From contig JALHQC010000004.1 in assembly GCA_022842165.1 (NCBI GenBank), positions 1 to 64,000 on the forward strand: a DNA stretch of 64,000 nucleotides, written 5' to 3'. The position numbers were made by a program, and so were the translations under genes. Position 1 is the first letter of the stretch; every line of letters begins with the position of its first letter. Shown in pieces: positions 7,987-29,002 of this stretch. The notes beneath the pieces are model-generated. The model had not been told where the DNA came from, made no database searches, and was given only the letters and a program-made list of their open reading frames with translations. Source of the DNA: a bacterium. GTDB taxonomy: Bacteria; Pseudomonadota; Alphaproteobacteria; Rhizobiales; Aestuariivirgaceae.

Positions 7987-9261
7987 TTATTCGGGATCAA
8001 GAAGTTTGTTGAGAAGATCGTGGCGACTGTCCATTTGACTGCTGGCGATGGCGCGAACTTTTTCTGCCGGCAAATCGCTTGTCGCGAAGCTAACCCGTTC
8101 CGCCAGGCTCACGATTCTCCGGCAAGCTTCGGTGATCTGGGCCTCGTCCACGGTCAGCGCCACGCGTAGATGCCCAGACCCACCCGCGCCGAAGCTTTCG
8201 CCGGGCATGGTGACGACCTTTTCCTCTTCCAGCAGCCGCGTTGCGAAAGCCTCGCCCGATAGGCCGGTCTTCCGCACGTCGACCATCACGAACATGCCGC
8301 CTTCCGGCATGCGGGCCGACACTTTCTTCGAAGCCTTGAGACCGGCGACAAGCGCCCTGGCGCGGGCCTCGTAATTGCGCTTCATCTCGTCCAGCTCGGG
8401 GAAATGCGTGTCGAGCGCGAAGGCCATGGCATCCTCAAGGAATGCCTGAGAGCCGAAGAGCATCGTCTCGGTCACCGGAATGCAGCGGTCGCAGAATTCC
8501 TCCGAGGCGGCGATCCAGCCGGCGCGGAAACCGGGGATCGCATGCGATTTCGAGATTGAGGAGACGACCACCGTGCGCTTCTCGAGTTCGGGCACGTCGA
8601 AGGGCGATGAGAACACCGTGTTGCCATAGGTCAAGGTCGCATAGACCTCGTCCGAGATGATCCACAAATCGTGCTTCTCGCAAAGCCTGCCGATCTTCTC
8701 GATCTCAGCTCTCGTGAATACCGCACCCGTGGGGTTTGACGGCGTGTTCATCAGCAGCACGCGCGACTTCGGCGTGATCGCCTTCTCGAGATCGGCGGCC
8801 TTGAGGTGAAAGCCATGATCGGGGTCGACCCGCACCGGCACGGTGATGCCGCCGGCGGACGCGATGACGCCCTCGTAGGTGGCGTAATAGGGGTCCGCCA
8901 TCAGCACCTCGTCGCCCACGTCAACGAGCGTCATCATCGCGGCATAAAGTGCGGTCTGCGTGCCGGGCAGATAGATGAACTGGTTCTCGTGGATGGCGCG
9001 GCCCGTCTGCACGGAGTAGAGCCTTGCCAGCGCGCGCCTCGCATTGGCCTCGCCGCGGCCTTCGGAATAGCGGGTGCGGCCGGCGCGCATCTGCTTCTCC
9101 GCGACATCGAGGATGGCGGTGGGCGGTTTGGCATCGGGCTCGCCGATCGACAGGAAAATCATCGGCTCGCCAAGTGCCGCGCGCTTCTTCCCCTCGATGT
9201 GGACGGCCCACTTCTCCGAGCCCAAGCCTGACAGACGTTCCGTGACTTTTGCAAACCGCAT
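7987..9261 (-). CDS. Class I/II PLP aminotransferase, AruH (arginine:pyruvate transaminase)-like
   Basis: A 424-residue fold-type I aminotransferase. The catalytic lysine is in SISKSHAIPGFRAGW near residue 236; NTPSNPTGAVF and SDEVYATL are also present. The whole sequence follows Pseudomonas AruH closely as I remember it, including PYYATYEGV, ISDEVY, SKSHA and PEGGMFVMVDVR. AruH converts L-arginine and pyruvate to 2-ketoarginine and alanine. It is last in a minus-strand run after the AcnX genes (30-bp gap). An AruI-like decarboxylase, a DauA-like dehydrogenase and a ureohydrolase within 20 kb support an arginine-type substrate. The enzyme could instead act on the product of the adjacent AcnX. 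Confidence 0.68.
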   Translation of the reverse strand: MRFAKVTERLSGLGSEKWAVHIEGKKRAALGEPMIFLSIGEPDAKPPTAILDVAEKQMRAGRTRYSEGRGEANARRALARLYSVQTGRAIHENQFIYLPGTQTALYAAMMTLVDVGDEVLMADPYYATYEGVIASAGGITVPVRVDPDHGFHLKAADLEKAITPKSRVLLMNTPSNPTGAVFTRAEIEKIGRLCEKHDLWIISDEVYATLTYGNTVFSSPFDVPELEKRTVVVSSISKSHAIPGFRAGWIAASEEFCDRCIPVTETMLFGSQAFLEDAMAFALDTHFPELDEMKRNYEARARALVAGLKASKKVSARMPEGGMFVMVDVRKTGLSGEAFATRLLEEEKVVTMPGESFGAGGSGHLRVALTVDEAQITEACRRIVSLAERVSFATSDLPAEKVRAIASSQMDSRHDLLNKLLDPE

Positions 9262-9291
9262 GATCTACCCTTCGATTCTTCGCGCCGGGTG

Positions 9292-9705
9292 TTACACGGT
9301 TTCGAAACGGATTTCACCCGCAGCGGAAATGCGCAAGGCTGATGCGCGCGAAAGCTCCAGCAACTCGCCTTCGCTGACGCTGAGGATGGCGCAGTGGCGG
9401 CCATAGAGCGTTGCCGCGACGTCCGCCCCGATGGCGAGGTTGATGTCCGGCGCGGCGAGGATGATGGCAGCAGGCGCGGTGCCAAGGCGGATTGCCTCGG
9501 CAATGGCGCCGGGGGCGGAGCCCGAGCCCTTGGACTCGCGCATCAGGAGAACGGTTCCGGCAACGCAAGCCCCCCTTTGCGGGTGGTGCACGTCGAGGAT
9601 CACGCCCGTCCTCGGCTCGAAGGCGCCCCAGAAGCTCAAGGGCTCGTCCAGTGCCAGAACCGGGCCATGGGCTTCGGCGGCATTCAATACGCGGGCGCGG
9701 ATCAT
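9292..9705 (-). CDS. AcnX small (swivel) subunit, DUF126 family
   Basis: A 137-residue protein of the DUF126/AcnX swivel family. It pairs with the AcnX catalytic subunit to make a two-subunit dehydratase; characterised bacterial examples dehydrate cis-3-hydroxy-L-proline. Family features are GPVLALDEPLSFWGAFEP near residue 15, the GSGSAPG loop near residue 62 and the DINLAIGADV segment. Its ATG (9705-9703) overlaps the stop of the large subunit (ATGA), so the two are coupled. Confidence 0.78.
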   Translation of the reverse strand: MIRARVLNAAEAHGPVLALDEPLSFWGAFEPRTGVILDVHHPQRGACVAGTVLLMRESKGSGSAPGAIAEAIRLGTAPAAIILAAPDINLAIGADVAATLYGRHCAILSVSEGELLELSRASALRISAAGEIRFETV

Positions 9706-10967
9706 CGGCTGGTCCACAGCCGAGGATCGCGCCAGACTTCGCCCGCAACAGCACTTTCTACGCATTCCTTCAGCGAGCCGAAGGCCACTTCGATGCCCAG
9801 CATGCCCGGTGCGTAATAGGCCCATTTGGCGGCGTTGGTCATCACGCGGCCCTTCAGCCCCCGCACGCGCGGCGAATAATAGGTGCAGACATCGACGGGG
9901 ATTTCAACGCCCGATTTCTGCAGCGCCGCAACCCAGCCCTTCGCCTCCGCCAGTTGCCGCACCACGCGGCTGGTGGAGACGAGGAAGGGAAGTCCGGTTG
10001 CGGCCCTGCGGCCATCGAGCAGGCGCACCAGTTCGCCGAATTCAGACAGCGAGAAATGCGGCGTGCCGAGTGCGACCGCATCGAGCGGGCCATCGCTGCC
10101 GGTCGAAAGCTCGCGATGGGCACGGGCGAGATCATCCGGCGTCACGGTGTGTGTTTCGGTGCCGGTGAAGACCGCGGAAAGTTGAGGTGCTTCCGGCGTG
10201 ACGCCGACGCCGTGCCAAAGCTCGACGCCGCCCGAGGCCGCCACGGCGGAACTGATGGCCTTCAGGGCATCCCTGCCGGTGTCTTTCGGCAAGCCAGAGA
10301 TGACCGGGCTGCGGCGGCCAGCGATGCGGCCCACGTGATGGCCGATCAGATGCGCGAAGACATCCTCGCTCCGCCAGCTTCCGGGAAGCGCGCTGCAGTC
10401 GAAATGAAGCTGGGCTTTCCGGCCTTCGTCGCGGTGAAGTCCGGCATCGGGGGCAAGGCCCGTCAGCGCGCAGGCGACGTCGAGATAGTCGCCATACTTG
10501 TTGGTGCGCGCGCCGACGACCGAATTATAGTACGAGACGGCATTCGACTCGCCGACCGCGATGTGATCGCCGAAGCCGGGGCCACCCGCATGCTGGTAGG
10601 GCGCGCAAGTCCAGGTCGGAACGCAGCCGAGCTTCGCATAGAGCCGCATCACCTCAGCCGCGCCGCTCACCATTTCAGGATCCTCCGCAGACGGACGAAG
10701 CGACGGATCGGCAAGGCTGACGACGCCATTGTTCGTCCAGGACGGGACAGCGAGGCTCGCGCCGTTCTCCAAAAGGAAGCGCACAAAATCGACATGGGCC
10801 TGGCCGGTGTAGAAGCAGGCATCGAGATGGGCGAAGCTCACGGGCAGCAGGCGCTCCGCACCCATGATGTCCGCGGCCTTCACCACCAGCCGCATGGCAA
10901 GCTGCATGGCCTTGCCCGAGTGGCCATCGAGCAGGGCGCGGGCGCGGTCTTCGAGAGCCAGGCTCAC
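9702..10967 (-). CDS. AcnX catalytic subunit (DUF521), cis-3-hydroxyproline dehydratase-like
   Basis: A 421-residue aconitase-X catalytic subunit. The signatures VPTWTCAPYQ, GESNAVSYYNSVVGARTNKYGD and FSLSEFGELVRLL are present. Members bind an iron-sulfur cluster and dehydrate cis-3-hydroxy-L-proline, giving a pyrroline that is then reduced to proline; some act in a modified mevalonate pathway. No proline racemase, pyrroline reductase or mevalonate gene is nearby, so the substrate is open. It starts with GTG at 10967, overlapping the preceding gene stop (GTGA), so it is translationally tied to the acyltransferase-ligase fusion, an unusual partner. Confidence 0.75.
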   Translation of the reverse strand: MSLALEDRARALLDGHSGKAMQLAMRLVVKAADIMGAERLLPVSFAHLDACFYTGQAHVDFVRFLLENGASLAVPSWTNNGVVSLADPSLRPSAEDPEMVSGAAEVMRLYAKLGCVPTWTCAPYQHAGGPGFGDHIAVGESNAVSYYNSVVGARTNKYGDYLDVACALTGLAPDAGLHRDEGRKAQLHFDCSALPGSWRSEDVFAHLIGHHVGRIAGRRSPVISGLPKDTGRDALKAISSAVAASGGVELWHGVGVTPEAPQLSAVFTGTETHTVTPDDLARAHRELSTGSDGPLDAVALGTPHFSLSEFGELVRLLDGRRAATGLPFLVSTSRVVRQLAEAKGWVAALQKSGVEIPVDVCTYYSPRVRGLKGRVMTNAAKWAYYAPGMLGIEVAFGSLKECVESAVAGEVWRDPRLWTSR

Positions 10968-13900
10968 GGCTTCACTTTTTCCCGTGCGAGGTTGTTGAGG
11001 CTGAGATAGTCGGTCTTGCCGGAGCCGAGCACGGGGAGTTCCGGCAGTGCTATCACGTTACGCGGAATCAACAGCGCGGTGGAGCCTGCGGCCTTCATGG
11101 CCTCCAGCACCTTCTTCGCATCGAGGGTCTCGTCCGTCGTGAACATCACGAGCTGCTCGCCCTTCTTGGCATCGGGAACCGCGACGACGGCATGCTGCGC
11201 GTCGGGGAAAACCTGCTGCAGCTTCGCCTCGACGGCAGAGAGCGAGATCATCTCGCCGGCGATCTTGGAAAAGCGCTTGGCGCGGCCGAGGATGGTGACA
11301 TAGCCCAGGTCATCGACCTTCACGATGTCGCCGGTGTCGTACCAGCCATCCGGCGGGGCTTCGATGACGCCGGGATTGTCGGCGCGGAGATAGCCCAGCA
11401 TCACGTTGGGACCCTTGACGAAAAGGCGGCCGCCTTCCGCGATGCCGGGAACGGGATCGAGCCGGTAGGAAATCTGGTCCAGCAGGCGGCCCACGGTGCC
11501 GGTGCGGTAATGCATGGGTGTGTTGACGGCGAGCACCGGCGAGCATTCGGTGGCGCCATAGCCTTCGAGAATGCGAAGCCCGAATTTCTCGATCCAGATT
11601 TCCCGCGTCTCGGGCTTCACGCGTTCCGCACCCGCCACCACAAGGCGCACGTTGAAGAAGTCGTAGGGGTGCGCGTTGCGGGCATAGCCCATGAGGAAGG
11701 TATCGGTGCCGAAGAGCACGGTGGCGTTGGTGTCGTAGCAAAGCTCGGGCACCACCTTGTAGTGGAGCGGCGAGGGATAGAGGAACGTGCGCACGCCGGC
11801 GAGCACCGGCAGCAATGCGCCACCGGTGAGGCCAAAGGCATGGAACATCGGCAGCGCATTGAAGACGATGTCGGACGCGGTAAACGCGATGCGCGCCGCC
11901 GCCTGGTAGCGGTTGGCGTGGAGGTTCCGGTGCGAAAGAACGACGCCCTTCGGCACGCCTTCGGAGCCCGACGTGAACAGGATGATGGCCGGCGCATCGG
12001 GATTGCGTTCGGCACCCGCCGCGCGCAAGGCGGCTGACGAAAAGAAGCGCGCCCACATGCCATAAAGCTTGTCCTTCGCGGTCAGCGTCTCGCGCAGGTC
12101 CTCGAGATAGATGATCTTGCGGCCTTCCGAGAGGAGCTTCACGTCCTCCTCCATGTTGCCGGCCTCGACGAAGCGGCGCGAGGTGATAATGGTCGAGACC
12201 TGCGCTGCTGCACAGGCGGCACCCATGTTGACGGCACCGGTCGAGAAATTCAGCATGGCCGGCACGCGGCCGAAGGCGTGGAGGCCGAACAGCGTGACGA
12301 AGCAGCCATTGGCATTGGGCAGCAGCACGGCGACGTGTTTTTCGCCCGGCGTCAGCGCGGCGATGCGGCGGCCGAGGATGAAGCTGCCCATCATCAGGCG
12401 GTCATAGCTTGCGGGGTTGCGCTGGATGTCTTCCAGCACCTTGTGGCCACGTCCATGCGTCGCGCGGGCATCGAGCAGTGCCTGAAACAGCGTTCGGCTG
12501 GTGTTCGAGGTGCGGAAGACCATGTCGGTCATCACGTCATAGAGCCGGTCGGCCTGATATTCGCGGAGTGCCGACCCACGCATCCCTTCCGGCGGATCGA
12601 ACTTCACCGGCGGCAGGAAGGTCAATGTGATCTTGGGGAACCAGCGCAGCCGCAGCTTGCCGCGCATCTTCGAGAAGGGGGTATATTGCGCGCCGTCGAT
12701 GCGAACGGGCAGGACGCGGGCCTTGGCCATCTGCGCAATGGCGCTCGGGCCTTCATAGACCTTCATCAGCGCGCCGGTAACGGTCAGGCGGCCCTCGGGG
12801 AAGATCACCACCTTGCGGCCCTTCTTCAACTCGTCGACCAGCACGCGCAGCGCCATGGGGTTCGTGGGGTCGATGGGGATCATGTTGAACAGCGCGAAGG
12901 TGGGCTTGGCCCACCACGTCTGCGCCACATGGGTGTTGATCGCAAAGCTGGCGCGGTCCGGCAGGTAGGCCGAGAGCAGGGGCCCGTCGAGCAATGACGT
13001 GTGGTTGGCGACGATCACGGCCTTTCTCCCCGCCGCACGGAAGTTCTCCATGCCCTTGATCTCGACACGATAGAACAGGCGGAAGACCTGGCGCGCCACA
13101 TTGGCGAAAAGCTCCTGCGGCAGCAGCCGGCAGATCCAGATCGCCGCGCCCGCATTGGCAATCCCCAGCAGCAGGAAAAATCCTTGCGCCGACATCACGC
13201 GCAACAGCGTTGCGGCAGCCAATGCCGACATGATCATGAAGATGGCGTTCATGACGTTGTTGGCCGCGATCACGCGCGAGCGCCGCGACGGGTTCGAACG
13301 GTGCTGCATGATGGCGTTCAAGGGCACGGCATAGATGCCGCCGAAGAAGGCGATGAAGAACAGGTCCACGCCGACGCGCCAGCCGGACCAGTGGGAAAAG
13401 AACGTCTCCACCATGTTGAAGCTGGTGCCGGCGAAATTCCTGTTGACGGCGCCCGCGGCGAAATAGAGATCGAAGAGAAACACCGTCATCATGATCGAGG
13501 CCACCGGCACATAGCGCGGCGAGACGTCGCCCTTCAGCAATGTCGTCGTCAGCAGCGAGCCAGCACCGATGCCGATCGTGAAGGTGGCGATGAAGATGTT
13601 GGCGACCGTGTCGTTGGCCAGCAGCACATCTTTTGTAAACACCGGGAACTGCGCGAGAATGGCCGCACCCAGAAACCAGAACCACGAGGCGCCGATGACG
13701 GCCCAGAACACATCGTCGCGCTCGCGGGCATAGCCCAAAAGCTTCATGGTCTGGCGCGGCACGTTCCAGTCGAAGACGATCGACTTGTCACCCGGTGCGG
13801 GCGGCATGAGGAAGGACATCCCCCAGGCAATCACCGCCAGCACGATGATGGTGCCCGCCAGCACCGGCTTGCCATAGTCCTGCAGCACCAGAAAGCCGCC

Positions 13901-14410
13901 GAACATGGTGCCGAGCAGGATCGTCACGAAGGTGCCAAGCTCGATCAGCGCATTGCCGCCGATCAGCTCTTCCTTCTTGAGGTATTGCGGCAGCACGCCA
14001 TACTTGATGGGGCCGAAGAAGGCAGCGGTTGTGCCGGCAAGGAACAGCACGGTGAGATGGAGGAAGGGATTGTCCATCCACAGGCTCCAGGCACCAAACA
14101 CCATCGCCAGAAGATCGAACAGCTTGATCCAGCGCGCCAGCATGGCCTTGTCGTGCTTGTCGGCAAGCTGGCCAGCAAGCGCGGAAAACAGGAAATAGGG
14201 CAGCATGAACAGCGCCAGCCCCGCCTGCACGAAGAGCGTGGCGTTCCAGCCATGGTTCACCGCGAGATCGAAGGTGATGAGGATGGCGATGCCGTTCCGC
14301 AGGCCGTTGTCGTTGAAGGCGCTGATGGCTTGCGTGACGAATAGCGGCAGGAAGCTTCTGGACTTCAGAAGGGCGAACTGGCTGGGCTCGCCCCGGGGCT
14401 GATCGGTCAT
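10964..14410 (-). CDS. Fused LplT-like MFS transporter, PlsC acyltransferase and acyl-ACP/CoA ligase
   Basis: A 1148-residue trifunctional protein. Residues about 1-420 form an MFS lysophospholipid-transporter-like membrane domain (FVTQAISAFNDNGLRNG; many hydrophobic segments). A PlsC domain follows, with NHTSLLD (the HX4D motif) near residue 468 and FPEGRLT near residue 540. An AMP-binding domain carries LFTSGSEGVPKGV near residue 817 and YDTGD near residue 1040. E. coli has the same functions as separate LplT and Aas proteins, which import and reacylate lysophosphatidylethanolamine. I start at ATG 14410. It heads the run that continues through AcnX and the aminotransferase with overlapping stops and starts. 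A role in phospholipid repair is likely; the operon context is unexpected. Confidence 0.83.
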   Translation of the reverse strand: MTDQPRGEPSQFALLKSRSFLPLFVTQAISAFNDNGLRNGIAILITFDLAVNHGWNATLFVQAGLALFMLPYFLFSALAGQLADKHDKAMLARWIKLFDLLAMVFGAWSLWMDNPFLHLTVLFLAGTTAAFFGPIKYGVLPQYLKKEELIGGNALIELGTFVTILLGTMFGGFLVLQDYGKPVLAGTIIVLAVIAWGMSFLMPPAPGDKSIVFDWNVPRQTMKLLGYARERDDVFWAVIGASWFWFLGAAILAQFPVFTKDVLLANDTVANIFIATFTIGIGAGSLLTTTLLKGDVSPRYVPVASIMMTVFLFDLYFAAGAVNRNFAGTSFNMVETFFSHWSGWRVGVDLFFIAFFGGIYAVPLNAIMQHRSNPSRRSRVIAANNVMNAIFMIMSALAAATLLRVMSAQGFFLLLGIANAGAAIWICRLLPQELFANVARQVFRLFYRVEIKGMENFRAAGRKAVIVANHTSLLDGPLLSAYLPDRASFAINTHVAQTWWAKPTFALFNMIPIDPTNPMALRVLVDELKKGRKVVIFPEGRLTVTGALMKVYEGPSAIAQMAKARVLPVRIDGAQYTPFSKMRGKLRLRWFPKITLTFLPPVKFDPPEGMRGSALREYQADRLYDVMTDMVFRTSNTSRTLFQALLDARATHGRGHKVLEDIQRNPASYDRLMMGSFILGRRIAALTPGEKHVAVLLPNANGCFVTLFGLHAFGRVPAMLNFSTGAVNMGAACAAAQVSTIITSRRFVEAGNMEEDVKLLSEGRKIIYLEDLRETLTAKDKLYGMWARFFSSAALRAAGAERNPDAPAIILFTSGSEGVPKGVVLSHRNLHANRYQAAARIAFTASDIVFNALPMFHAFGLTGGALLPVLAGVRTFLYPSPLHYKVVPELCYDTNATVLFGTDTFLMGYARNAHPYDFFNVRLVVAGAERVKPETREIWIEKFGLRILEGYGATECSPVLAVNTPMHYRTGTVGRLLDQISYRLDPVPGIAEGGRLFVKGPNVMLGYLRADNPGVIEAPPDGWYDTGDIVKVDDLGYVTILGRAKRFSKIAGEMISLSAVEAKLQQVFPDAQHAVVAVPDAKKGEQLVMFTTDETLDAKKVLEAMKAAGSTALLIPRNVIALPELPVLGSGKTDYLSLNNLAREKVKP

Positions 14411-15068: not shown

Positions 15069-15073
15069 CGAAG

Positions 15074-16738: not shown

Positions 16739-16740
16739 GG

Positions 16741-17723
<983 letters not shown>

Positions 17724-17727
<4 letters not shown>

Positions 17728-20329: not shown

Positions 20330-21332
20330 GGCGGATTCTCGGGTTGATGAGGCCATAGAGAAGATCGACGATGAGGTTGACGAAGATGACCATGGCGGAA
20401 ATCAGCAGGATGCCGCCCTGGAGGGCCGGATAGTCGCGGCGGCCGATCGACTCGACCAGCCATTTGCCCACGCCCGGCCAGGAGAAGATCGTCTCGGTCA
20501 GCACCGCGCCTGCCAGCAGCCCGCCGGTCTGCAAGCCGATGACGGTGACGACGGGGATCAGCGCGTTCCGCAGCGCGTGGACGCCGATGATGCGATAGGT
20601 CGAAAGCCCCTTGGCACGGGCCGTGCGCACATAGTCTTCCTCCAGCACCTCGAGCATCGAGGACCTGGTCATGCGGGCGATCACGGCGAGCGGCACGGTG
20701 CCGAGCACGATGGTCGGCAGGATCAGGTGGTGGACGGCATCCCAGAAGGCGCCCTTCTGGCCCGACAGCAGCGAGTCGATCAGCATGAAGCCGGTGACCG
20801 GCTCGTAATAGAACTTGATCAGGTCGACGCGGCCCGACACTGGCGTCAGCCCCAGCGTGTTCGACATGACGAGGATGAGGATCAGGCCCCACCAGAAGAT
20901 CGGCATCGAATAGCCGGTGAGCGCCAGGCCCATCAGCGACTGGTCATAGACGCCGCCGCGCCGCGAGGCGGCGATGACGCCCGCCGGAATGCCCAGCACG
21001 ACGGCGAAGATCATGGCCGAGATGGTGAGCTCCAGAGTCGCCGGAAACAGCGTTGCGAATTCGTGGAGAATGGGGGTCTTCGAGATGATCGAGGTGCCGA
21101 AATCGCCGTGGAGAATGCCCCAGACATAGTCGCCGAACTGCTTCCACACCGGCTGGTCGAGGCCCATCTCGCGGCGGAGCTCTTCGAGGCGTTCGGGGCT
21201 GATGCCGCGCTCGCCGCGGCGCACCTCGATGGGATCGCCCGGAACCAGGCGGATCATAATGAAGGTGACGAACATGAGGGCGAAGAACGTCGGCAGGGTG
21301 AGGAGCAGACGCTTCAAGAGAAACCGGAACAT
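20319..21332 (-). CDS. Peptide ABC transporter permease (DppB-like)
   Basis: A 337-residue inner-membrane permease of the DppB/OppB type. The N-terminus MFRFLLKRLLLTLPTF and the RLVPGDP segment near residue 28 are typical, as is the EAA-loop region around RTARAKGLSTYRIIGVHALRNA near residue 235. It pairs with the DppC-like permease to form the channel. The gene follows the binding-protein gene after a hairpin-containing gap of 64 bp. Confidence 0.88.
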   Translation of the reverse strand: MFRFLLKRLLLTLPTFFALMFVTFIMIRLVPGDPIEVRRGERGISPERLEELRREMGLDQPVWKQFGDYVWGILHGDFGTSIISKTPILHEFATLFPATLELTISAMIFAVVLGIPAGVIAASRRGGVYDQSLMGLALTGYSMPIFWWGLILILVMSNTLGLTPVSGRVDLIKFYYEPVTGFMLIDSLLSGQKGAFWDAVHHLILPTIVLGTVPLAVIARMTRSSMLEVLEEDYVRTARAKGLSTYRIIGVHALRNALIPVVTVIGLQTGGLLAGAVLTETIFSWPGVGKWLVESIGRRDYPALQGGILLISAMVIFVNLIVDLLYGLINPRIRHAK

Positions 21333-21396: not shown

Positions 21397-22998
21397 TTAC
21401 TCGGCGATGTCCACGTTCTGGAATTCGTGGGCGCCCAGCGGGCTCACCTTGTAGCCCTGGACTTCCTTGCGGATCGGCTCGAACACGGTCGAATGCGCGA
21501 TGTTCAGCCACGGCACCTGGGCGTGGTGGATCTTCTGGGCCTGCTGGTAGAGCTTGGTGCGCTCCGCCTGGTCCGTGATCTCGACCGCCTTGGTGACTGC
21601 GGCATTGAAATCAGCATCGCACCACTTCGGGATGTTCTGGCCATTGGGCTTGCCTTCGGAGTTGCAGCCCAGCAGCACGGCCAGGAAGTTGTCCGGATCG
21701 CCATTGTCGCCGGTCCAGCCGAGGAGGCCCATCTGGTGCTCGCCCGCCTGCAGGCGCTTCCTGTACTCGCCCCACTCGTAGGAGACGAGCGTCGCGTTGA
21801 TGCCGACCTTGGCCAGGTCCGCCTGCATCATTTCCGCCATGCGCTTGGCATTGGGGTTGTAGGGGCGCTGTACCGGCATCCACCAGATGTCGGTCGAAAG
21901 GTTCTCGACACCGGCGGCCTTCAGCATCTCCTTGGCCTTCTCGGGATTGTACTCGTAGTCGACCGTCGACTCGTCATACGACCACATGGTCGGCGGGATC
22001 GGGTTCTTGGCCTTCTGGCCGGCACCCTGATAAACTTCCGACAGGATGGCATCGCGGTCGATCGCCATGGCGATGGCCTGGCGGACTTCCACCTTGTCGA
22101 AGGGCGGCTTCTGCGCATTCATGGCGAGATAGCCGATGTTGAGGCCCGCCAGTTCCAGAACCCGGATGTCGGCGTTCTGCTTCATCGCGGCAAGGTCGGC
22201 CGGGTTCGGATAGCCCATCACCTGGCATTCATTGGCCTGAAGCTTCGCATAGCGCGCGGTCGCGTCCGGCGTGATCGCATAGACGAGATCGTCGATCTTG
22301 GGCTTGCCGGCCCAGCCGTCGAAGGCCTTGTAACGGATGACCGCGTCCTTCTGGTAGGCGACGAAGGAGAACGAGCCGGTGCCCACGGGAATCTGGTCGA
22401 ACTCTTCGGGGGCGCCCTTGTCCATCAGGAACTTGGCGTATTCAGCCGAGTGGATCGTTGCAAAATCCATGGCGAGGTTGGCGAGGATCGGCGCATTGGG
22501 CTTGTTGAGCTTCATGACCACCGTCAGGTCGTCCGCACCCTTCTCGATCGAGGCGAGAAGATCGGGCATGCTCATGTCGTTGAAGTAGTCGTAGGAGCCG
22601 CCCGACACCTTGGCGTAGGGATGCTCGGCCTTCCACATGCGCTCGAAGGACCAGATCACATCATCGGCGTTGAGGTCGCGGGTGGGGGTGAAGCCGTTGA
22701 CGCCCGAATGAAACTTGACGCCCGAACGCAGCTTGAAGGTGATGGTCTTGCCGTCGTCAGAAACCGCATAGCTCTCGGCAAGGCCCGGCTCGACCTGGGT
22801 GGTGCCGGGCGTGAACTGCACGAGCTTGTTGTAGACGGGGCGCGCCGCATCGAGGCTGGTGCCCGTGGTGTTCATCGAAGGGCTGAAGTTTTCCGGCGAG
22901 CCTTCCGAGCAATAGACCAGCGTCTTGGCATTGGCCGCGCCGGCCACCAGCATGGTGGAGGCCAGCAGAGCCGCGCCGAAGAGTGTTTTGAATTTCAT
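21397..22998 (-). CDS. Periplasmic peptide-binding protein (DppA-like)
   Basis: A 533-residue SBP family 5 protein with a signal peptide (MKFKTLFGAALLAS...AGAANA, cleavage near residue 24). The DppA-type start of the mature chain, KTLVYCSEGSPENFSP, follows. Later WNYDP-like features include TDIWWMPVQRPYNPNAKRMAEM. DppA of E. coli binds dipeptides and haem; the ligand here is unknown. The operon ends with a 2-ketoarginine-decarboxylase-like gene, so an arginine-containing peptide or conjugate is a reasonable guess. First gene of the minus-strand operon; divergent from the PhyH gene. Confidence 0.88.
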   Translation of the reverse strand: MKFKTLFGAALLASTMLVAGAANAKTLVYCSEGSPENFSPSMNTTGTSLDAARPVYNKLVQFTPGTTQVEPGLAESYAVSDDGKTITFKLRSGVKFHSGVNGFTPTRDLNADDVIWSFERMWKAEHPYAKVSGGSYDYFNDMSMPDLLASIEKGADDLTVVMKLNKPNAPILANLAMDFATIHSAEYAKFLMDKGAPEEFDQIPVGTGSFSFVAYQKDAVIRYKAFDGWAGKPKIDDLVYAITPDATARYAKLQANECQVMGYPNPADLAAMKQNADIRVLELAGLNIGYLAMNAQKPPFDKVEVRQAIAMAIDRDAILSEVYQGAGQKAKNPIPPTMWSYDESTVDYEYNPEKAKEMLKAAGVENLSTDIWWMPVQRPYNPNAKRMAEMMQADLAKVGINATLVSYEWGEYRKRLQAGEHQMGLLGWTGDNGDPDNFLAVLLGCNSEGKPNGQNIPKWCDADFNAAVTKAVEITDQAERTKLYQQAQKIHHAQVPWLNIAHSTVFEPIRKEVQGYKVSPLGAHEFQNVDIAE

Positions 22999-23154: not shown

Positions 23155-23958
23155 ATGTCCCACAATCTCTTGCAGAAAGACACCGTCGAGGACTTCCGCC
23201 GCGATGGCGCCTGCGCGCTGCGCGGGCTGTTCCGCGACTGGGTGGAAACGCTGCGCTCGGGCGTTGCGCGCAACATGGCGGAGCCTTCGGCGGATGTTAA
23301 GATCTACCAGGGCCAGAACGGCTCGGGCCGCTTCTTCGGCGACTATTGCAACTGGAACCGCATTCCCGAATACCGCGACTTCATCTTCAATTCGAATGCC
23401 GCGGAAATCGGCCGCGAGCTGATGGGCACGAAGACCGTGCGGCTGTTCCACGAGCACGTGCTGGTGAAGGAGGCGGGTGCCGACGTGGCGACACCCTGGC
23501 ACCAGGACCAGCCTTACTATTGCGTCGATGGCAGCGACACGGTGTCTCTCTGGATTCCGCTCGATCCGGTGCCGCGCGAGCGGACGCTCGAATTCGTCAA
23601 GGGCTCGCACAAGTGGGGGAAGTATTTCCGGCCCGAGCGTTTCAACAAGCAGGCGCTGAACGAGAATGATGGCCTCGAACCGGTGCCGGACATCAACGGC
23701 AACCGCGATACCTATGAGGTGCTCGGCTGGGCGCTGGAGCCGGGCGATGCGGTGGCTTTCAACTATCTCACGCTCCACGGCGCGCCGGCCAACACCTCGC
23801 AGGTCGAACAGCGCCGCGCCTTCTCGCTCAGGCTGATGGGCGATGACGTGCGCTATGCAAGGCGCGAGGGGATCAACACCTCGCCGCCGTTCCGCAGCGT
23901 GACGCTCACGCATGGCGCGGTGATGGACGCGCCGGAGTTTCCGCTGCTCAAGGGATGA
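23155..23958 (+). CDS. Phytanoyl-CoA dioxygenase (PhyH) family Fe(II)/2-oxoglutarate oxygenase
   Basis: A 267-residue cupin-fold oxygenase. The metal ligands are visible as H-x-D in TPWHQDQPYY near residue 119 and the distal His in NYLTLHGAPANTS near residue 207. A 2-oxoglutarate-binding Arg is probably in RRAFSLRLMGDD. Bacterial PhyH enzymes hydroxylate small molecules, including ectoine (EctD) and free or derivatised amino acids. The substrate here is unknown, but the neighbourhood deals with arginine-type compounds. A hydroxylated product would fit the AcnX dehydratase found further left; this link is speculative. The ATG at 23155 follows CGGAG. Confidence 0.78.
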   Translation: MSHNLLQKDTVEDFRRDGACALRGLFRDWVETLRSGVARNMAEPSADVKIYQGQNGSGRFFGDYCNWNRIPEYRDFIFNSNAAEIGRELMGTKTVRLFHEHVLVKEAGADVATPWHQDQPYYCVDGSDTVSLWIPLDPVPRERTLEFVKGSHKWGKYFRPERFNKQALNENDGLEPVPDINGNRDTYEVLGWALEPGDAVAFNYLTLHGAPANTSQVEQRRAFSLRLMGDDVRYARREGINTSPPFRSVTLTHGAVMDAPEFPLLKG

Positions 23959-23963
23959 GACGT

Positions 23964-24069
23964 CCCCACCCGCCTCGCTGGCGCTCGGCACCCTCCCCGC
24001 TGCGCGGAGAGGGATAAGCATCCCTCCTCGCTTCAGCGGGGAGGGTGGCCGCGAAGCGGCCGGGTGGGG
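23964..24069. repeat. Palindromic repeat, CCCCACCC/CCTCCCC family
   Basis: The element is bounded by CCCCACCCGCC and GGCCGGGTGGGG. Inside it has CCCTCCCCGC-TGC-GCGGAGAGGG and CCCTCCTCGCTTCAGCGGGGAGGG hairpins. It lies between the convergent PhyH and D-arginine-dehydrogenase-like genes and may act in transcription termination. Confidence 0.82.
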
Positions 24070-24081
24070 TCAGCGCGACGC

Positions 24082-25170: not shown

Positions 25171-25321
25171 GGAGAAACACTAGCGGCTGGTGCAGGATTG
25201 TTCCACCCAATCCTGACGCCGCCGCGCGCCATTCATGCAGGCCATGCATGCAGGGCTTGGCGCAGTCCTCTTGCCAGTGGCATGGCTTGCCGCCAGAGTG
25301 CCGCGATATTCCGGAGACACC

Positions 25322-26503
25322 ATGACCAACGTGACATTGCACTTTCCGCTCGCCGAGTACGAACGCCGCATTGCCAGGACGCGCGCGGCAATGGCGGCGA
25401 AGGGCCTCGACCTCGTCATCGTGTCGGACCCTTCGAACATGGCGTGGCTCACCGGCTATGACGGCTGGTCCTTCTATACGCACCAGGCCGTGCTGCTGGG
25501 GATCGAGGGCGAGCCTCTGTGGTGGGGCCGCGGCATGGACGCGCAAGGTGCGCGGCGCACGGTGTTCATGAAGCCCGACAACATCATCGGCTATGAAGAC
25601 ACCTATGTGCAGAACCCGCTGAAGCATCCGATGGAAGATCTCTCCAGGGTCATCGCCTCGCGCGGATGGGAGAAGGCGCGGATCGGCGTCGAGATGGACA
25701 ATTACTGGTACTCGGCGGCGGCGAACGAGACGCTCCGCACGCATCTGAAGGACGCAAAATTCTCGGATGCCACGGGCCTCGTGAACTGGCAGCGGATCGT
25801 GAAGAGCGATCATGAGGTCGAGTTCATCCGCCGCGCGGCGAAGATCGTCGATGCCATGCATGCCAAGGTCATCGAGCTCGTCGAGCCGGGCCTCAGGAAG
25901 AACGTGCTCGTCGCCGAAATCCAGAGACAGGCGATTTTGGGCGCCGATGGCCACTGGGGCGACTATTGCGCCTTCGTGCCGATGCTGCCCTCGGGGCTCG
26001 ATGCGACGGCTCCGCATCTCACCTGGGACGACCGGCCCTTCCTCAACAACGAGGGCACCTTCTTTGAGCTTGGCGGCTGCTATCGGCGCTATCACGCGCC
26101 CTTGTCGCGCACCGTCTATCTGGGCAAGCCGCCGCAAAAATTTTTGGAAGCGGAGAAAGCCGTCTCGGAAGCCACGCAAAACGGCCTTGATGCCTGCAAG
26201 CCCGGCACGACATGCGGCGAGGTGGCGGAAGCCTTCTTCGGCACGCTGCAGAGACTGGGCTTCACCAAGGATTCGCGCGCCGGCTATTCGATCGGCCTGT
26301 CCTATCCGCCGGACTGGGGCGAACGCACCTTGTCGATCCGCCGCGGCGACAGAACCGTGCTCGAACCCAACATGACGATCCACTTCATGCCGGCGCTGTG
26401 GCTCGACGATGGCGGGCTCGAACTCTCCGAAACCATTCTCATCACGCCAGCCGGTGCGGAATGCCTGTGCCAGACGCCACGCAAGCTCGTCGTCAAGAAC
26501 TGA
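25322..26503 (+). CDS. M24-family hydrolase, ectoine hydrolase (DoeA/EutD)-like, without the canonical metal ligands
   Basis: A 393-residue protein with a creatinase N-terminal domain and a pita-bread M24 C-terminal domain. SDPSNMAWLTGYDGWSFYTHQ, IGVEMDNYWYSAAA, PHLTWDDRPF and YSIGLSYPPDWGERT match ectoine hydrolase DoeA as I remember it. Where metallo-aminopeptidases have two Asp and one His ligand, this protein reads FELGGCYRRYHAPLSRTV and SIGLSYPPDW. It is therefore probably metal-independent, like creatinase. DoeA opens the ectoine ring. EutB, EutC and EutE/DoeB partners are absent, so a related cyclic amidine, guanidino conjugate or N-acyl amino acid may be the substrate. The ATG at 25322 follows CCGGAGAC; the next gene starts 8 bases after the stop. 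Confidence 0.65.
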   Translation: MTNVTLHFPLAEYERRIARTRAAMAAKGLDLVIVSDPSNMAWLTGYDGWSFYTHQAVLLGIEGEPLWWGRGMDAQGARRTVFMKPDNIIGYEDTYVQNPLKHPMEDLSRVIASRGWEKARIGVEMDNYWYSAAANETLRTHLKDAKFSDATGLVNWQRIVKSDHEVEFIRRAAKIVDAMHAKVIELVEPGLRKNVLVAEIQRQAILGADGHWGDYCAFVPMLPSGLDATAPHLTWDDRPFLNNEGTFFELGGCYRRYHAPLSRTVYLGKPPQKFLEAEKAVSEATQNGLDACKPGTTCGEVAEAFFGTLQRLGFTKDSRAGYSIGLSYPPDWGERTLSIRRGDRTVLEPNMTIHFMPALWLDDGGLELSETILITPAGAECLCQTPRKLVVKN

Positions 26504-26511
26504 GGTAGACC

Positions 26512-27471
26512 ATGGCTCCCTTCAACCAGCCCGTCTCGGGCCTTGTCACGCCGCGCTTTGGCGGCATTGCCACCTTCATGCGGCTGCCGCATGTGCCGCT
26601 GGATGAAGCGAAGGACATCGACATCGGCCTCGTCGGCATTCCGTGGGATGGCGGCACGACGAACCGCCCCGGTCCCCGCCATGCGCCACGCCAGATGCGC
26701 GACATGTCGGCCATGGTGCGGCCGATGCACCAGACGACGAAGGTGAGGCCCTATGACCTCGCCAATGTCGCGGACTTAGGGGACTGCCCGGTCAATCCCG
26801 CGGATGTGAACGATGCGCTGAAGCGCGTCGAGACCTATTTCAAGAAACTTGTCGCCAAGGGCATTCGCCCGCTGGCAGCCGGCGGCGATCACTTGTGTTC
26901 ATTGCCGGTCTTGCGCGCGGTGGGCGAAAAGGCGCCCGTCGGCATGATCCATTTCGATGCCCATACCGATCTCTACGACGGCTATTTCGGCGGCTTCAAA
27001 TACACTCACGGCACGCCCTTCCGCCGCGCCATCGAGGAAGGCGTGCTGGACCCCAAGCGCACGATCCAGATCGGGCTCCGCGGCTCGATGTATGACAATG
27101 ACGATTTCGAATACGGCGAGAAGATGGGTGTCCGCCTCGTCAGGATCGAGGAAGCGATCGAGAAGGGGCCGAAAGCCATCATGGCGGAAGCGCGTGCCGT
27201 CGTCGGCGATCAGCCCACCTATGTGACCTTCGACATCGACATGCTGGACCCCGTCTATGCGCCCGGCACCGGCACGCCGGAAGTTGGCGGCTTCACCACC
27301 TTCCAGGCGCAACAGATGCTGCGGGAACTCCGTGGACTGAACATCGTGGGCGCCGACGTCGTCGAAGTCTCGCCGCCGTTCGATCCCTCAGGCATCACCG
27401 CGCATGCGGGCGTCACCATGATGTTCGAAATCCTGTGCTCGATGGCCGAGGACGTGGCGCGGCGGCGGTAG
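26512..27471 (+). CDS. Ureohydrolase, guanidinobutyrase (GbuA)/agmatinase family
   Basis: A 319-residue arginase-fold enzyme. All Mn-binding motifs are present: GGDHL near residue 124, HFDAHTD near residue 146 and TFDIDMLDP near residue 240. The N-terminal GGIATFMRLP and GTTNRPGPRHAPRQMRDMS segments are typical of guanidinobutyrase, guanidinopropionase and agmatinase and differ from arginase. With AruH-, DauA- and AruI-like genes nearby, hydrolysis of 4-guanidinobutyrate to GABA and urea is the simplest reading. It is co-directional with the DoeA-like gene, 8 bases apart, so the two form an operon. The dehydrogenase for 4-guanidinobutyraldehyde is not in this window. Confidence 0.78.
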   Translation: MAPFNQPVSGLVTPRFGGIATFMRLPHVPLDEAKDIDIGLVGIPWDGGTTNRPGPRHAPRQMRDMSAMVRPMHQTTKVRPYDLANVADLGDCPVNPADVNDALKRVETYFKKLVAKGIRPLAAGGDHLCSLPVLRAVGEKAPVGMIHFDAHTDLYDGYFGGFKYTHGTPFRRAIEEGVLDPKRTIQIGLRGSMYDNDDFEYGEKMGVRLVRIEEAIEKGPKAIMAEARAVVGDQPTYVTFDIDMLDPVYAPGTGTPEVGGFTTFQAQQMLRELRGLNIVGADVVEVSPPFDPSGITAHAGVTMMFEILCSMAEDVARRR

Positions 27472-27487
27472 GTGACCGGCAGACTTT

Positions 27488-27595: not shown

Positions 27596-27599
27596 TAAG

Positions 27600-28193
27600 T
27601 CACGCGAACACCAAAACTTCCACCGCCGTCGGATTATAGTTGTTGCACGGGTTCAGCACCTGCGGGCAGTTGGAGATCACCGCCAGCACATCCATCTCGG
27701 CGCGGATGCCGACATGGTCGCCGGGCTTTGAACTTCCCAACGCAATCGCGGCATCGCCGGCGGCTCCCACCGGCACGGTCATGAACCAGTTGACGTTCGG
27801 CACGATGTCGCGCCAGCCCAGCCCATGGGGCTTCAGCGCGGCGAGGAAATTCTCGCGGCAGCCCGTGTTGGCAACGCCATAGAGCATGCGGTTCGAGGGT
27901 TCCGAACAGCAGCCGCCGATCGTGTCGTGGCCACCGAAGCTGTCTTCGACGATCGTGAACAGCGGATTGGCGCGGTCGGAATAGAGCACGTCGCCCAAGG
28001 TCAGCAGCAGGTGCCCGGCCTTCTTCATGGTGTTGGGCTGGTGATAGCGCTCGTCAAAATCATGGGCGTTGTAGCAAAGGAAATCGACCGCCTGCTGACC
28101 ATGGGTGTCGATGATGCGGAGAACCTCGTTCCTGCGGATCACGCGGGCCCAGGGTGCCCGTGCCGCAATCGTCTCGCGATGGATCTCGCGCAT
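27600..28193 (-). CDS. DUF1989 / urea-carboxylase-associated-type protein
   Basis: A 197-residue DUF1989 protein. The opening IAARAPWARVIRRNEVLRIIDTHGQQAVDFLCYN, the NTMKK segment, CSEPSNRMLYG near residue 100 and the C-terminal CNNYNPTAVEVLV are family hallmarks. Relatives accompany urea and guanidine carboxylases, and a pair of them (CgdA/CgdB) acts as carboxyguanidine deiminase. Here only one copy exists, with no carboxylase nearby, next to a ureohydrolase that would release urea. It starts 2 bases after the EutA-like stop, so the two form an operon. The reaction is unknown; hydrolysis or deimination of a guanidino- or urea-derived compound is the best guess. Confidence 0.72.
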   Translation of the reverse strand: MREIHRETIAARAPWARVIRRNEVLRIIDTHGQQAVDFLCYNAHDFDERYHQPNTMKKAGHLLLTLGDVLYSDRANPLFTIVEDSFGGHDTIGGCCSEPSNRMLYGVANTGCRENFLAALKPHGLGWRDIVPNVNWFMTVPVGAAGDAAIALGSSKPGDHVGIRAEMDVLAVISNCPQVLNPCNNYNPTAVEVLVFA

Positions 28194-28195
28194 GG

Positions 28196-29002
28196 TCAGG
28201 CGAGCTGCGTTTCGAACAGCCGGCCCCATTGCGGCATCACATCTTCGATGCCCGCCAGCCGCAGCGCATGCCAGGCCATGGCGTGATTGGACGACGTGAT
28301 GGGAACGCCCGTCTCCGCCTCGATGGCGCGTGCGGCTTCGGCCAGCCGCACCGAGGTACAGGACACGAACACCGCATCGACCTTGGCATGCGACAGCAGC
28401 GTCATCACGCCCTGCTTGATCGCGGCGGGCGTGATCGCGGCGACGACGCTGTCATCCTGCTCGTTGAAGGAGCCGAAGACCGGAACCTCGAAGCCGCGGC
28501 CACGGATATAGTCCGCGACGATGCGGTTGACGTCGGCGCGATAGGGCGTCAGCACGCCGATGCGTTTCGCTCCAAGGGCGCGGAAAGCCGCGAAGGCGCC
28601 GGTGATCGGGGTGGTGCATTTCGCATCGGGCCTCGCCTCGCGGATGCGCGCGAAGACCTTTTCCTCGCCGATCGCCATGGAAGCCGAAGTGCAGCCATAG
28701 GCGACAACGTCGAGCGCCGCGCCGGGCAGGATGACGTCGGTTGCCGCAGCGATGCGGGGCTCCATGGCGCGCAGCGTCTCGGGCGTGATCTGGGCGTCGT
28801 TGAGGATGCGGCTCTCGTAAAGCGCCACACCGGGAAGCCCCGCCATGATTGCGCGCCATTCATGCTCGATGGTGAAGTCGGTGGCGAGAACGATGAGCCC
28901 CAGCCGCGCCCGGCTGGCGATGCCGCCATCGGTTTCAAAAGGCAAATGCTCGATCAGGATCATGTCCGTCTCAGGCTTCAGGCCCAGCGCCACTTCATTC
29001 AT
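28196..29002 (-). CDS. Asp/Glu racemase superfamily protein, EutA/maleate isomerase-like
   Basis: A 268-residue protein with the two-domain Asp/Glu/hydantoin racemase fold. Both catalytic cysteines are present, in VVAYGCTSASMAIG near residue 104 and AVFVSCTSVRLAEA near residue 214. It most resembles maleate isomerase, arylmalonate decarboxylase and the ectoine-utilisation protein EutA. With a D-arginine-dehydrogenase-like gene nearby, amino acid or hydantoin racemisation is attractive, but the family does not predict the substrate. First gene of a two-gene minus-strand operon with DUF1989. Confidence 0.68.
   Translation of the reverse strand: MNEVALGLKPETDMILIEHLPFETDGGIASRARLGLIVLATDFTIEHEWRAIMAGLPGVALYESRILNDAQITPETLRAMEPRIAAATDVILPGAALDVVAYGCTSASMAIGEEKVFARIREARPDAKCTTPITGAFAAFRALGAKRIGVLTPYRADVNRIVADYIRGRGFEVPVFGSFNEQDDSVVAAITPAAIKQGVMTLLSHAKVDAVFVSCTSVRLAEAARAIEAETGVPITSSNHAMAWHALRLAGIEDVMPQWGRLFETQLA

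What the first reader, a model, noticed from the sequence alone, without database searches (positions are those of the whole stretch)
7987..29002. Dispersed arginine/guanidino catabolic region with unusual extra enzymes
Within 21 kb there are homologues of AruH (transaminase), AruI (2-ketoarginine decarboxylase), DauA (D-arginine dehydrogenase) and guanidinobutyrase. Together these give most of the route from L- or D-arginine to GABA and urea. Mixed in are a DppABCDF-type importer ending in the aruI-like gene, a PhyH oxygenase, an AcnX dehydratase, a DoeA-like hydrolase, a DUF1989 protein and an EutA-like racemase. No described pathway that I know uses all of these. The set suggests uptake of an arginine-containing peptide, opine or cyclic/hydroxylated arginine derivative that is hydrolysed, racemised or oxidised and then fed into the guanidinobutyrate route. 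The 4-guanidinobutyraldehyde dehydrogenase and a local regulator are missing.
Basis: partly seen in the sequence, partly recalled or inferred. Interest (0 to 1): 0.78.

Follow-up and report, generated by a model that had tools for sequence, protein, structure and literature searches.

The report
Modular arginine-breakdown gene cluster
This is a real, conserved set of bacterial genes that most likely breaks down D- and L-arginine to urea and a GABA-type product, with several optional add-on genes, one of them a relative of the ectoine-splitting enzyme whose job here is unknown.

Summary
The genes named are present, in an Aestuariivirga-like Hyphomicrobiales genome. In 37 genomes of the genus, AruI (33), DauA (31) and a close ureohydrolase orthologue (33) go together: all three in 30, none in 3. 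DauA and the ureohydrolase lie within 5 kb in 28 of 31 genomes with both. So AruI-DauA-ureohydrolase is a genuine cluster. The Dpp importer, PhyH, AcnX, DoeA and EutA-DUF1989 are optional: 18 genomes have aruI at the end of a dpp operon, 14 a compact form. Corrections: the ureohydrolase is of the 3-guanidinopropionase (GpuA) sequence type; a guanidinobutyrase-type paralogue lies elsewhere; EutA and DUF1989 miss their curated cut-offs; DoeA passes its own. Most likely function: D-/L-arginine to 2-ketoarginine, decarboxylation, urea release, GABA. AcnX may feed the same decarboxylase. Unexplained is DoeA: 11 of 12 DoeA-bearing genus genomes have a copy beside DauA and/or the ureohydrolase, yet 10 of 12 lack an over-cut-off DoeB, its ectoine partner. 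Against a changed function, the DoeA of the A. litoralis ectoine operon nests among these copies. A new variant of a known pathway; no peptide, opine or cyclic-arginine substrate is shown.

The parts
7987..9261 (-). AruH-like class I transaminase (candidate L-arginine:2-oxoacid transaminase)
   Evidence: 40% identity to the transaminase beside aruI in P. citronellolis, best match of that protein in the own genome; at the same locus in compact relatives
9292..9708 (-). AcnX small (swivel) subunit
   Evidence: PF01989; [quoted passage not shown]
9702..10967 (-). [quoted passage not shown]
   Evidence: PF04412; 225.6 bits to 7cnq; residue check against PMC8184944 passages
10964..14410 (-). MFS-acyltransferase-AMP ligase fusion ('AasC' in this report); backbone gene at one edge of the locus, not taken as part of the pathway
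   Evidence: syntenic in relatives
15155..16738 (-). AruI-like ThDP-dependent 2-oxo acid decarboxylase, last gene of the dpp operon
   Evidence: PRK07524 582 bits, cut-off 500; 46% to the AruI beside the AruH-like gene of P. citronellolis
16741..17727 (-). DppF-type ATPase
   Evidence: PRK11308 549 bits, cut-off 408
17724..18710 (-). DppD-type ATPase
   Evidence: PF00005 and PF08352; PRK11022 456.6 bits, below cut-off 541
18714..19424 (-). small protein of unknown function inserted in the dpp operon
   Evidence: no family over cut-off; orthologues in the dpp operons of G228, G304 and G297
19430..20329 (-). DppC-type permease
   Evidence: PRK10913 405.5 bits, below cut-off 483
20319..21332 (-). 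DppB-type permease
   Evidence: PRK10914 489.4 bits, below cut-off 590
21397..22998 (-). DppA-type solute-binding protein (SBP family 5)
   Evidence: PF00496; DppA model 727 bits, below cut-off 1005
23155..23958 (+). PhyH-family Fe(II)/2-oxoglutarate oxygenase, substrate unknown
   Evidence: PF05721 95.7 bits; nearest solved relative MysH, 98 bits
24082..25170 (-). DauA-like FAD-dependent D-amino-acid (D-arginine) dehydrogenase
   Evidence: match in 31 of 37 genus genomes
25322..26503 (+). DoeA/EutD-family hydrolase (ectoine hydrolase family), divergent from dauA and just upstream of the ureohydrolase gene
   Evidence: TIGR02993 621.7 bits, cut-off 613; trees; residue differences
26512..27471 (+). 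ureohydrolase of GpuA (3-guanidinopropionase) sequence type
27600..28193 (-). DUF1989 protein, related to but below the cut-offs of UAAP1/UAAP2
   Evidence: pair with the EutA-like gene seen in 4 genomes
28196..29002 (-). EutA/arylmalonate-decarboxylase-like protein
   Evidence: TIGR02990 219 bits, cut-off 318; NF052327 76.7 bits, cut-off 225

Best explanation
The locus is a modular arginine-catabolic cluster. DauA oxidises D-arginine, and possibly other basic D-amino acids, to 2-ketoarginine. The AruH-like enzyme can make the same keto acid from L-arginine. AruI decarboxylates the 2-oxo acid. An aldehyde dehydrogenase encoded elsewhere oxidises the aldehyde. The GpuA-type ureohydrolase releases urea from a guanidino acid of the route; whether this is 4-guanidinobutyrate, 2-ketoarginine or a shorter acid is open. 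The net products are urea and GABA. In the extended form Dpp brings in the substrate. AcnX, if it dehydrates cis-3-hydroxy-L-proline as its relatives do, yields delta1-pyrroline-2-carboxylate, the closed form of 5-amino-2-oxopentanoate, which an AruI homologue of Sinorhizobium decarboxylates; AcnX would then feed the same decarboxylase. Shown here: gene identities by homology, conserved linkage, co-presence and co-absence of the core. Inferred: substrates, order of steps, the AcnX link, co-regulation. PhyH, DoeA and EutA-DUF1989 are accessory, with unassigned substrates.
For: Core co-occurrence in 37 genus genomes: AruI 33, ureohydrolase 33, DauA 31, all three 30, none 3. DauA and ureohydrolase lie within 5 kb in 28 of 31 genomes with both; in the other three (G303, G414, G416) a gene lies at a contig edge or contigs end between them. 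The compact locus read in full (L166) is AruH-AasC-HAD-AruI-DauA, then ureohydrolase, a TerB-family gene and lnt. In G004 and G055, of another family, DauA is next to a ureohydrolase with the guanidinobutyrase-type loop. The AruH-like protein is the best match in the genome. In S. meliloti AspC (40% to AruH) and its neighbour IlvB1 (AruI homologue) act in arginine transamination; IlvB1 is sevenfold more active on 5-amino-oxopentanoate, and ureohydrolase SpeB2 accepts 4-guanidinobutyraldehyde, 2-ketoarginine and 4-guanidinobutanoate (PMC7268258, passages). AcnX, HAD, AruI and DauA follow each other on one strand in L179, and AcnX sits beside AasC in 10 of the 12 extended genus loci where that stretch could be read.
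Against: No substrate has been tested. The ureohydrolase carries Tyr where GpuA has Tyr157 and guanidinobutyrase has Met161 (that these residues set specificity is recalled, not from a call), and a Met-type paralogue sits at G000:C18, so 4-guanidinobutyrate may be handled elsewhere. The AruI family is promiscuous. No aldehyde dehydrogenase is linked. The AruH-like gene stays at the locus where AcnX and Dpp are absent and borders sarcosine-oxidase-type genes, so it may belong to another process. AcnX differs from the solved enzyme at Thr72 (Ser), Ile206 (Phe), Cys71 (Gly) and Cys510 (Tyr). The linkage is mostly a trait of this family: of 40 DauA regions read, 12 have a ureohydrolase match, 9 of 13 in the window's family but 3 of 27 outside it.
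Confidence: 0.66

Rival explanations
1. The core acts mainly on 5-amino-2-oxopentanoate chemistry: the ureohydrolase removes urea from 2-ketoarginine first, and AruI then decarboxylates 5-amino-2-oxopentanoate (also reached from D-ornithine or hydroxyproline) to 4-aminobutanal. No 4-guanidinobutyraldehyde dehydrogenase would be needed.
For: The S. meliloti AruI homologue prefers 5-amino-oxopentanoate and SpeB2 accepts 2-ketoarginine; AcnX linkage; the ureohydrolase is not of the guanidinobutyrase type.
Against: In G004 and G055 DauA is beside a guanidinobutyrase-type enzyme. The AcnX substrate is only inferred. IlvB1 of S. meliloti is a homologue, not the same protein.
Confidence: 0.3
2. The window's DoeA is simply the cell's ectoine hydrolase, working with the doeB-eutBC-ehu operon on another contig (G000:C58), and its place beside dauA has no pathway meaning.
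For: It passes the DoeA equivalog cut-off. The own genome's ectoine operon has DoeB, EutB, EutC and transporter genes, and the only other DoeA-family match in the genome is a sub-cut-off DoeA2 (475 bits, cut-off 613). The DoeA inside the complete ectoine operon of A. litoralis (L032) nests within the arginine-linked clade and shares its letters at positions 128, 167, 200, 220 and 250 and Cys at 215. In L172 a DoeA-DoeB pair, both over cut-off, stands between the ureohydrolase and dauA.
Against: 10 of the 12 DoeA-bearing genus genomes have no DoeB over the cut-off. A. litoralis has a second DoeA beside dauA besides its ectoine copy. In G297 DoeA and the ureohydrolase form a pair of their own, with no DauA match at 1e-60 in the genome.
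Confidence: 0.42
3. The dpp operon imports D-arginine-containing dipeptides, as the first reader proposed in general form.
For: dpp is operonic with aruI in 19 genomes. An M19 dipeptidase gene lies beside dauA, between it and the ureohydrolase gene, in G247. That M19 enzymes can cleave dipeptides with a C-terminal D-residue is recalled.
Against: No dipeptidase gene was seen in the window's cluster. Dpp-family binding proteins also carry haem, nickel and opines (recalled; nickel and opine models scored).
Confidence: 0.3
4. The genes are a chance assembly of unrelated metabolic genes at a permissive locus.
For: PhyH, dpp, DoeA, AcnX and EutA-DUF1989 vary between relatives. A close PhyH orthologue of G280 lies beside other genes (L126). 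Outside the family most DauA regions read lack these partners.
Against: Co-presence and co-absence of the three core genes across the genus; dauA linked with ureohydrolase or DoeA in other families (L172, G004, G055) and on two MAG contigs with DppA or AruI (L033, L035).
Confidence: 0.08

Closest known systems
Arginine transaminase pathway (AruH-AruI-aldehyde dehydrogenase-guanidinobutyrase) of Pseudomonas
   Same: AruH-like, AruI-like and ureohydrolase genes; the same predicted chemistry
   Different: Ureohydrolase of GpuA type; DauA and Dpp in the cluster; no linked aldehyde dehydrogenase, whereas P. citronellolis has an aldehyde-dehydrogenase-like gene beside its aruH
D-arginine utilisation (DauA, DauB of P. 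aeruginosa)
   Same: DauA-like dehydrogenase giving 2-ketoarginine
   Different: There DauB returns 2-ketoarginine to L-arginine; here the keto acid is predicted to go to AruI. DauB was not searched for
Arginine transamination network of Sinorhizobium (AspC, IlvB1, SpeB2; PMC7268258, passages)
   Same: AruH-like transaminase, AruI-type decarboxylase and ureohydrolase in an alphaproteobacterium
   Different: There aspC and ilvB1 are neighbours and at least 16 redundant enzymes take part; no DauA, Dpp or DoeA is named in the passages read
Ectoine catabolism (DoeA/EutD-DoeB/EutE-EutABC)
   Same: DoeA passes TIGR02993; EutA-like gene nearby
   Different: No DoeB, EutB or EutC in the window cluster; EutA below cut-off; partner is a ureohydrolase
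[quoted passage not shown]
   Same: Both subunits, with most catalytic and binding residues
   Different: Two-chain form; Thr72 to Ser, Ile206 to Phe; no other hydroxyproline gene recognised in the cluster

Membership tests
Arginine transaminase pathway (AruHI) | AruH orthologue | tested here: met
   40% over 387 aa; best of 8 matches in the own genome
Arginine transaminase pathway (AruHI) | AruI-type decarboxylase | tested here: met
   PRK07524 582 bits, cut-off 500
Arginine transaminase pathway (AruHI) | guanidinobutyrase-type ureohydrolase in the cluster | tested here: not met
   GpuA-type by score and loop residues; the guanidinobutyrase-type copy is at G000:C18
Arginine transaminase pathway (AruHI) | 4-guanidinobutyraldehyde dehydrogenase | tested here: inconclusive
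   None linked; 9 family matches in the genome, the two best 38% and 40% identical to the query
D-arginine dehydrogenase (DauA) | full-length homology to solved DauA | tested here: met
   282 bits to 3nyc over residues 4-361, best non-DauA chain 46 bits
D-arginine dehydrogenase (DauA) | activity on D-arginine | not testable with these tools
   needs enzyme assay
Ectoine hydrolase DoeA/EutD | TIGR02993 equivalog cut-off | tested here: met
   621.7 bits, cut-off 613
Ectoine hydrolase DoeA/EutD | linkage to DoeB | tested here: not met
   No DoeB in the window cluster; over-cut-off DoeB in 2 of 12 DoeA-bearing genus genomes, the window's genome being one of the two, on another contig
Ectoine hydrolase DoeA/EutD | residues near-invariant in ectoine-operon DoeAs | tested here: inconclusive
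   19 positions conserved in over 95% of 68 rows differ in the window, but the A. litoralis ectoine-operon copy shares several changes; contact with substrate was not tested
Ectoine utilisation protein EutA | TIGR02990 cut-off | tested here: not met
   219 bits, cut-off 318
Carboxyguanidine deiminase / UAAP (DUF1989) | TIGR03424 or TIGR03425 cut-off | tested here: not met
   241 vs 284.7 and 164.8 vs 205.95; that UAAP proteins are carboxyguanidine deiminases is recalled
[quoted passage not shown]
   Trp35, Ser70, Asp203, Cys273, Glu292, Ser293, Cys508, Lys530, Tyr534 kept; Thr72 Ser, Ile206 Phe, Cys71 Gly, Cys510 Tyr (numbering offset of 10 inferred)

The most novel reading that the evidence does not exclude
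The DoeA-family enzyme has left ectoine metabolism and works as a ring-opening hydrolase for cyclised intermediates of this route. Candidates are delta1-pyrroline-2-carboxylate, cyclised 2-ketoarginine or iminoarginine made by DauA or AcnX, or a cyclic guanidino acid. It would deliver the open-chain acid to AruI or to the GpuA-type ureohydrolase encoded next to it: a third chemistry in the creatinase/DoeA branch of the M24 fold.
Probability: 0.18. Interest if true: 0.72.

Novelty: new variant of a known kind. Interest (0 to 1): 0.42.

Why it matters
It shows a D-/L-arginine route kept as a cluster at one chromosomal place across a genus of environmental Hyphomicrobiales. It also flags proteins that the annotation model calls ectoine hydrolase but whose genomes mostly lack the over-cut-off deacetylase partner; this matters because EutD/DoeA is the query used to count ectoine consumers (PMC5924519 and PMC13188858, passages). 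And it gives a testable link between hydroxyproline-type dehydratases and AruI-type decarboxylases.

Tried and rejected
A first family guess (PF06545) was wrong and told only the genome's handle and size. PhyH, the fasciclin gene and an apparent gene at 24064-25461 were first read on the wrong strand; PhyH and fasciclin were rescanned. The Rfam scan found one tRNA and no riboswitch. DoeA as an Xaa-Pro type peptidase was considered: DoeA structures score 505-506 bits and the best peptidase chain 89, so this was set aside. A search for papers holding guanidinobutyrate, ectoine and D-arginine gave 0 papers; Aestuariivirga with arginine gave one listing, titled on fungal-mycosphere soil communities (listing only). 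The methylguanidine dioxygenase paper (PMC12508155, passages) was checked as a parallel for PhyH; 'PhyH' and 'phytanoyl' do not occur in its main text. Trees: 100 DoeA-family rows were collected (after leaving out loci that repeat others). The first tree used 55; the 45 left out were mostly Pseudomonas and Burkholderia relatives, but also four other rows (L045-L048) dropped by an over-wide list, plus three repeats. I therefore rebuilt it with 97 rows (three repeats left out), with the same main clades. Both are quick trees without bootstrap. The residue comparison used 14 arginine-linked and 68 ectoine-linked rows, with the A. litoralis ectoine copy set apart; many of the 68 are close relatives of one another. 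On re-checking I found that this copy shares several of the changed letters; for that reason I lowered the novel case from 0.20 to 0.18 and raised the ectoine rival from 0.40 to 0.42. Structure prediction was not run, because the tool returns no coordinates for measuring distances to the active site.


Full report
SETTING. The window is contig C4 of a 4.3 Mb draft genome. Its genus includes the genome G068, whose contig C12 has the length (665,913 bases) of the Aestuariivirga litoralis record NZ_QKVK01000002.1 and a DoeA at the same place. I take G068 to be A. litoralis and the window to be an Aestuariivirga-like member of the Hyphomicrobiales.

WHAT IS THERE. Along the + strand: AruH-like transaminase (-), AcnX small and large subunits (-), a large MFS-acyltransferase-AMP-ligase gene (-, called AasC here), a fasciclin gene (+), AruI (-), DppF, DppD, a small unknown protein, DppC, DppB and DppA (all -), PhyH (+), DauA (-), DoeA and ureohydrolase (both +), DUF1989 and EutA-like (both -), then lnt (+). 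aruI begins 3 bases after dppF.

NAMES THAT NEED CORRECTION. The arginase-family enzyme scores 426 bits to 3-guanidinopropionase and 317 to guanidinobutyrase. In the loop where guanidinobutyrase has Met161 and GpuA has Tyr157 (their role in specificity is recalled, not from a call), the window protein has Tyr, as have the genus orthologues aligned. A second ureohydrolase of the same genome, G000:C18:6022-6942, has the Met-type loop. The EutA-like and DUF1989 proteins miss their NCBIfam cut-offs (219 against 318; 241 against 284.7 and 164.8 against 205.95). DoeA passes its own (621.7 against 613).

IS IT MORE THAN CHANCE? Of 37 genomes of the genus, AruI was found in 33 (1e-80), DauA in 31 (1e-60), and the ureohydrolase orthologue in 33: 31 near full length at 81% identity or more and 2 contig-edge fragments at 85-87%. 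All three occur in 30, none in 3 (G406, G358, G418), one or two in 4 (G297, G306, G409, G411). DauA and the ureohydrolase lie within 5 kb on one contig in 28 of 31 genomes with both; in the other 3 a gene lies at a contig edge or contigs end between them. DauA and AruI lie within 3 kb in 14 genomes, the compact form, which leaves no room for dpp between them; I read the gene content of 5 of these (L166-L170) and know the other 9 by coordinates only. AruI ends a dpp operon in 18 genomes of the genus, the window's included, and in G247 of a sister genus. The remaining AruI genome, G411, could not be placed. Further out the linkage thins. DauA matches at 1e-60 occur in 78 of 397 genomes of the order. 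Of 40 DauA regions that I fetched and read, 12 have a ureohydrolase match: 9 of 13 in the window's family and 3 of 27 outside it (L172, L173, L174); 4 have DoeA (L163, L164, L172, L179).

MODULES. The compact locus read in full (L166) is AruH-AasC-HAD-AruI-DauA, then ureohydrolase, a TerB-family gene and lnt. Optional modules are as follows. Dpp. PhyH beside dpp in 13 genomes (G000, G068, G135, G208, G228, G318, G304, G305, G420, G297, G410, G419, G407) but not in G300, G247 or G416. AcnX beside AasC in 10 of the 12 extended loci of the genus whose AasC flank could be read (G000, G068, G208, G228, G416, G419, G305, G407, G303, G297; absent in G318 and G410) and in none of the 4 compact loci read far enough (L166, L167, L169, L170). 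EutA with DUF1989 in G000, G318, G300 and G420, EutA alone in G247; in G037 of another family a DUF1989 gene (52%) lies about 1.3 kb from dauA (L171). DoeA as below. A HAD-family gene is next to aruI or to the end of dpp in L162, L166, L172 and L179 but was not seen in the window. The sister-genus locus of G247 has an M19 dipeptidase gene between dauA and the ureohydrolase.

MOST LIKELY FUNCTION. DauA of P. aeruginosa turns D-arginine into 2-ketoarginine through iminoarginine (PMC5619798, passages). AruI-type enzymes decarboxylate 2-oxo acids of this kind, and the AruH-like protein is the best match in the genome for the transaminase beside aruI in P. citronellolis. In Sinorhizobium, AspC (40% to AruH) and its neighbour IlvB1 do this, IlvB1 with sevenfold higher activity on 5-amino-oxopentanoate, and the ureohydrolase SpeB2 accepts 4-guanidinobutyraldehyde, 2-ketoarginine and 4-guanidinobutanoate (PMC7268258, passages). 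So the order of urea release and decarboxylation is open, and I give the standard order only a modest edge. In G004 and G055, of another family, dauA is next to a ureohydrolase with the guanidinobutyrase loop, which supports a guanidino-acid role for this pairing.

ACNX. [quoted passage not shown] residue roles from PMC8184944, passages; I inferred the offset of 10 between chain and paper numbering). The paper says that type IIa proteins have only two of the three cluster cysteines, as here, but that their binding sites are completely conserved, which is not quite so here. If the protein makes delta1-pyrroline-2-carboxylate, the open form of that compound is what the Sinorhizobium AruI homologue prefers; in L179 AcnX, HAD, AruI and DauA follow each other on one strand. 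This link is an inference.

DOEA. Twelve of 37 genus genomes have a DoeA-family match at 1e-60 (11 over the cut-off; G303 has a contig-edge fragment). In 11 of the 12 a copy stands beside DauA and/or the ureohydrolase; in G297 it pairs with the ureohydrolase alone. [quoted passage not shown] DoeB over its cut-off occurs in 2 of 37 genomes, G000 and G068, both DoeA-bearing, so 10 of 12 lack it; G300, G419 and G420 have weaker DoeB-like matches (213-276 bits). Draft incompleteness could explain some absences. In the tree of 97 rows the arginine-linked DoeAs fall in a 35-row clade (SH-aLRT 99) that also holds DoeA-DoeB(-aminotransferase) loci, mostly of Rhodobacterales. The Aestuariivirga copies form a 12-row clade (100) in which the DoeA of the complete A. 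litoralis ectoine operon and the G318 copy are nested (the 55-row tree agrees). That nesting argues that this DoeA type can still serve ectoine breakdown. Positions 167, 200, 215, 217 and 250 depart from the ectoine-linked consensus in most arginine-linked rows (for 217, Ile in 68 of 68 ectoine-linked rows, Phe in 11 of 14 arginine-linked rows). Against reading this as a new substrate: L172 and L179 keep the ectoine letters at four of the five; the A. litoralis ectoine-operon copy carries the arginine-type letters at 167, 200, 215 and 250; and A. litoralis's arginine-linked copy keeps Ile217. In L172 the order is ureohydrolase-DoeB-DoeA, then divergent DauA-Dpp, with both ectoine proteins over cut-off. 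In the 20 kb read of the own genome's ectoine operon (G000:C58) there are DoeB, EutB, EutC and transporter genes but only a sub-cut-off DoeA2, so the window DoeA could complete it. I leave the question open, with ectoine hydrolysis and a new substrate both alive.

CONCLUSION. A genuine, conserved, modular variant of known arginine routes; the peptide, opine or cyclic-arginine idea is not shown. The part most worth a bench test is the DoeA-family enzyme.

Noticed in passing
18714-19424 (-): A small protein with a hydrophobic N-terminal stretch (by eye) and no family over cut-off sits inside the dpp operon between dppC and dppD; orthologues of 62-68% identity sit at the same place in G228, G304 and G297.
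   Followed up: partly
L126:9485-13551: A close PhyH orthologue (about 80%) of G280 lies beside class II aldolase-family, epimerase/dehydratase-family and EamA-family genes, not beside arginine genes, so PhyH may have a role of its own.
   Followed up: partly
L121:1-11210 (G000:C58): In the 20 kb read, the own genome's ectoine operon has no cut-off DoeA and no EutA match but carries two further M24 genes (45% and 28% to the window DoeA), a GntR/FCD regulator gene and DoeB.
   Followed up: partly
L223:7281-11872 (G318:C53): A DoeA-family gene next to proline-racemase-family (best model trans-3-hydroxyproline dehydratase, below cut-off), DAO-family and DHDPS-family genes: another DoeA outside an ectoine operon.
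   Followed up: partly
265-6938 (+): A glutamine-synthetase-type gene followed by sarcosine-oxidase-type subunit genes lies near the AruH-like gene; a SoxG-family gene is also beside it in L250.
   Followed up: no
L036, L038, L041, L048, L072: DoeA-family genes with no DoeB, EutB or EutC match in the stretches held, in four alphaproteobacterial contigs and one Granulosicoccaceae contig.
   Followed up: no
L171:10206-12590 (G037): In a genome of another family a DauA homologue (54%) has a DUF1989 gene (52%) close by, without ureohydrolase, AruI or EutA matches in the region.
   Followed up: no
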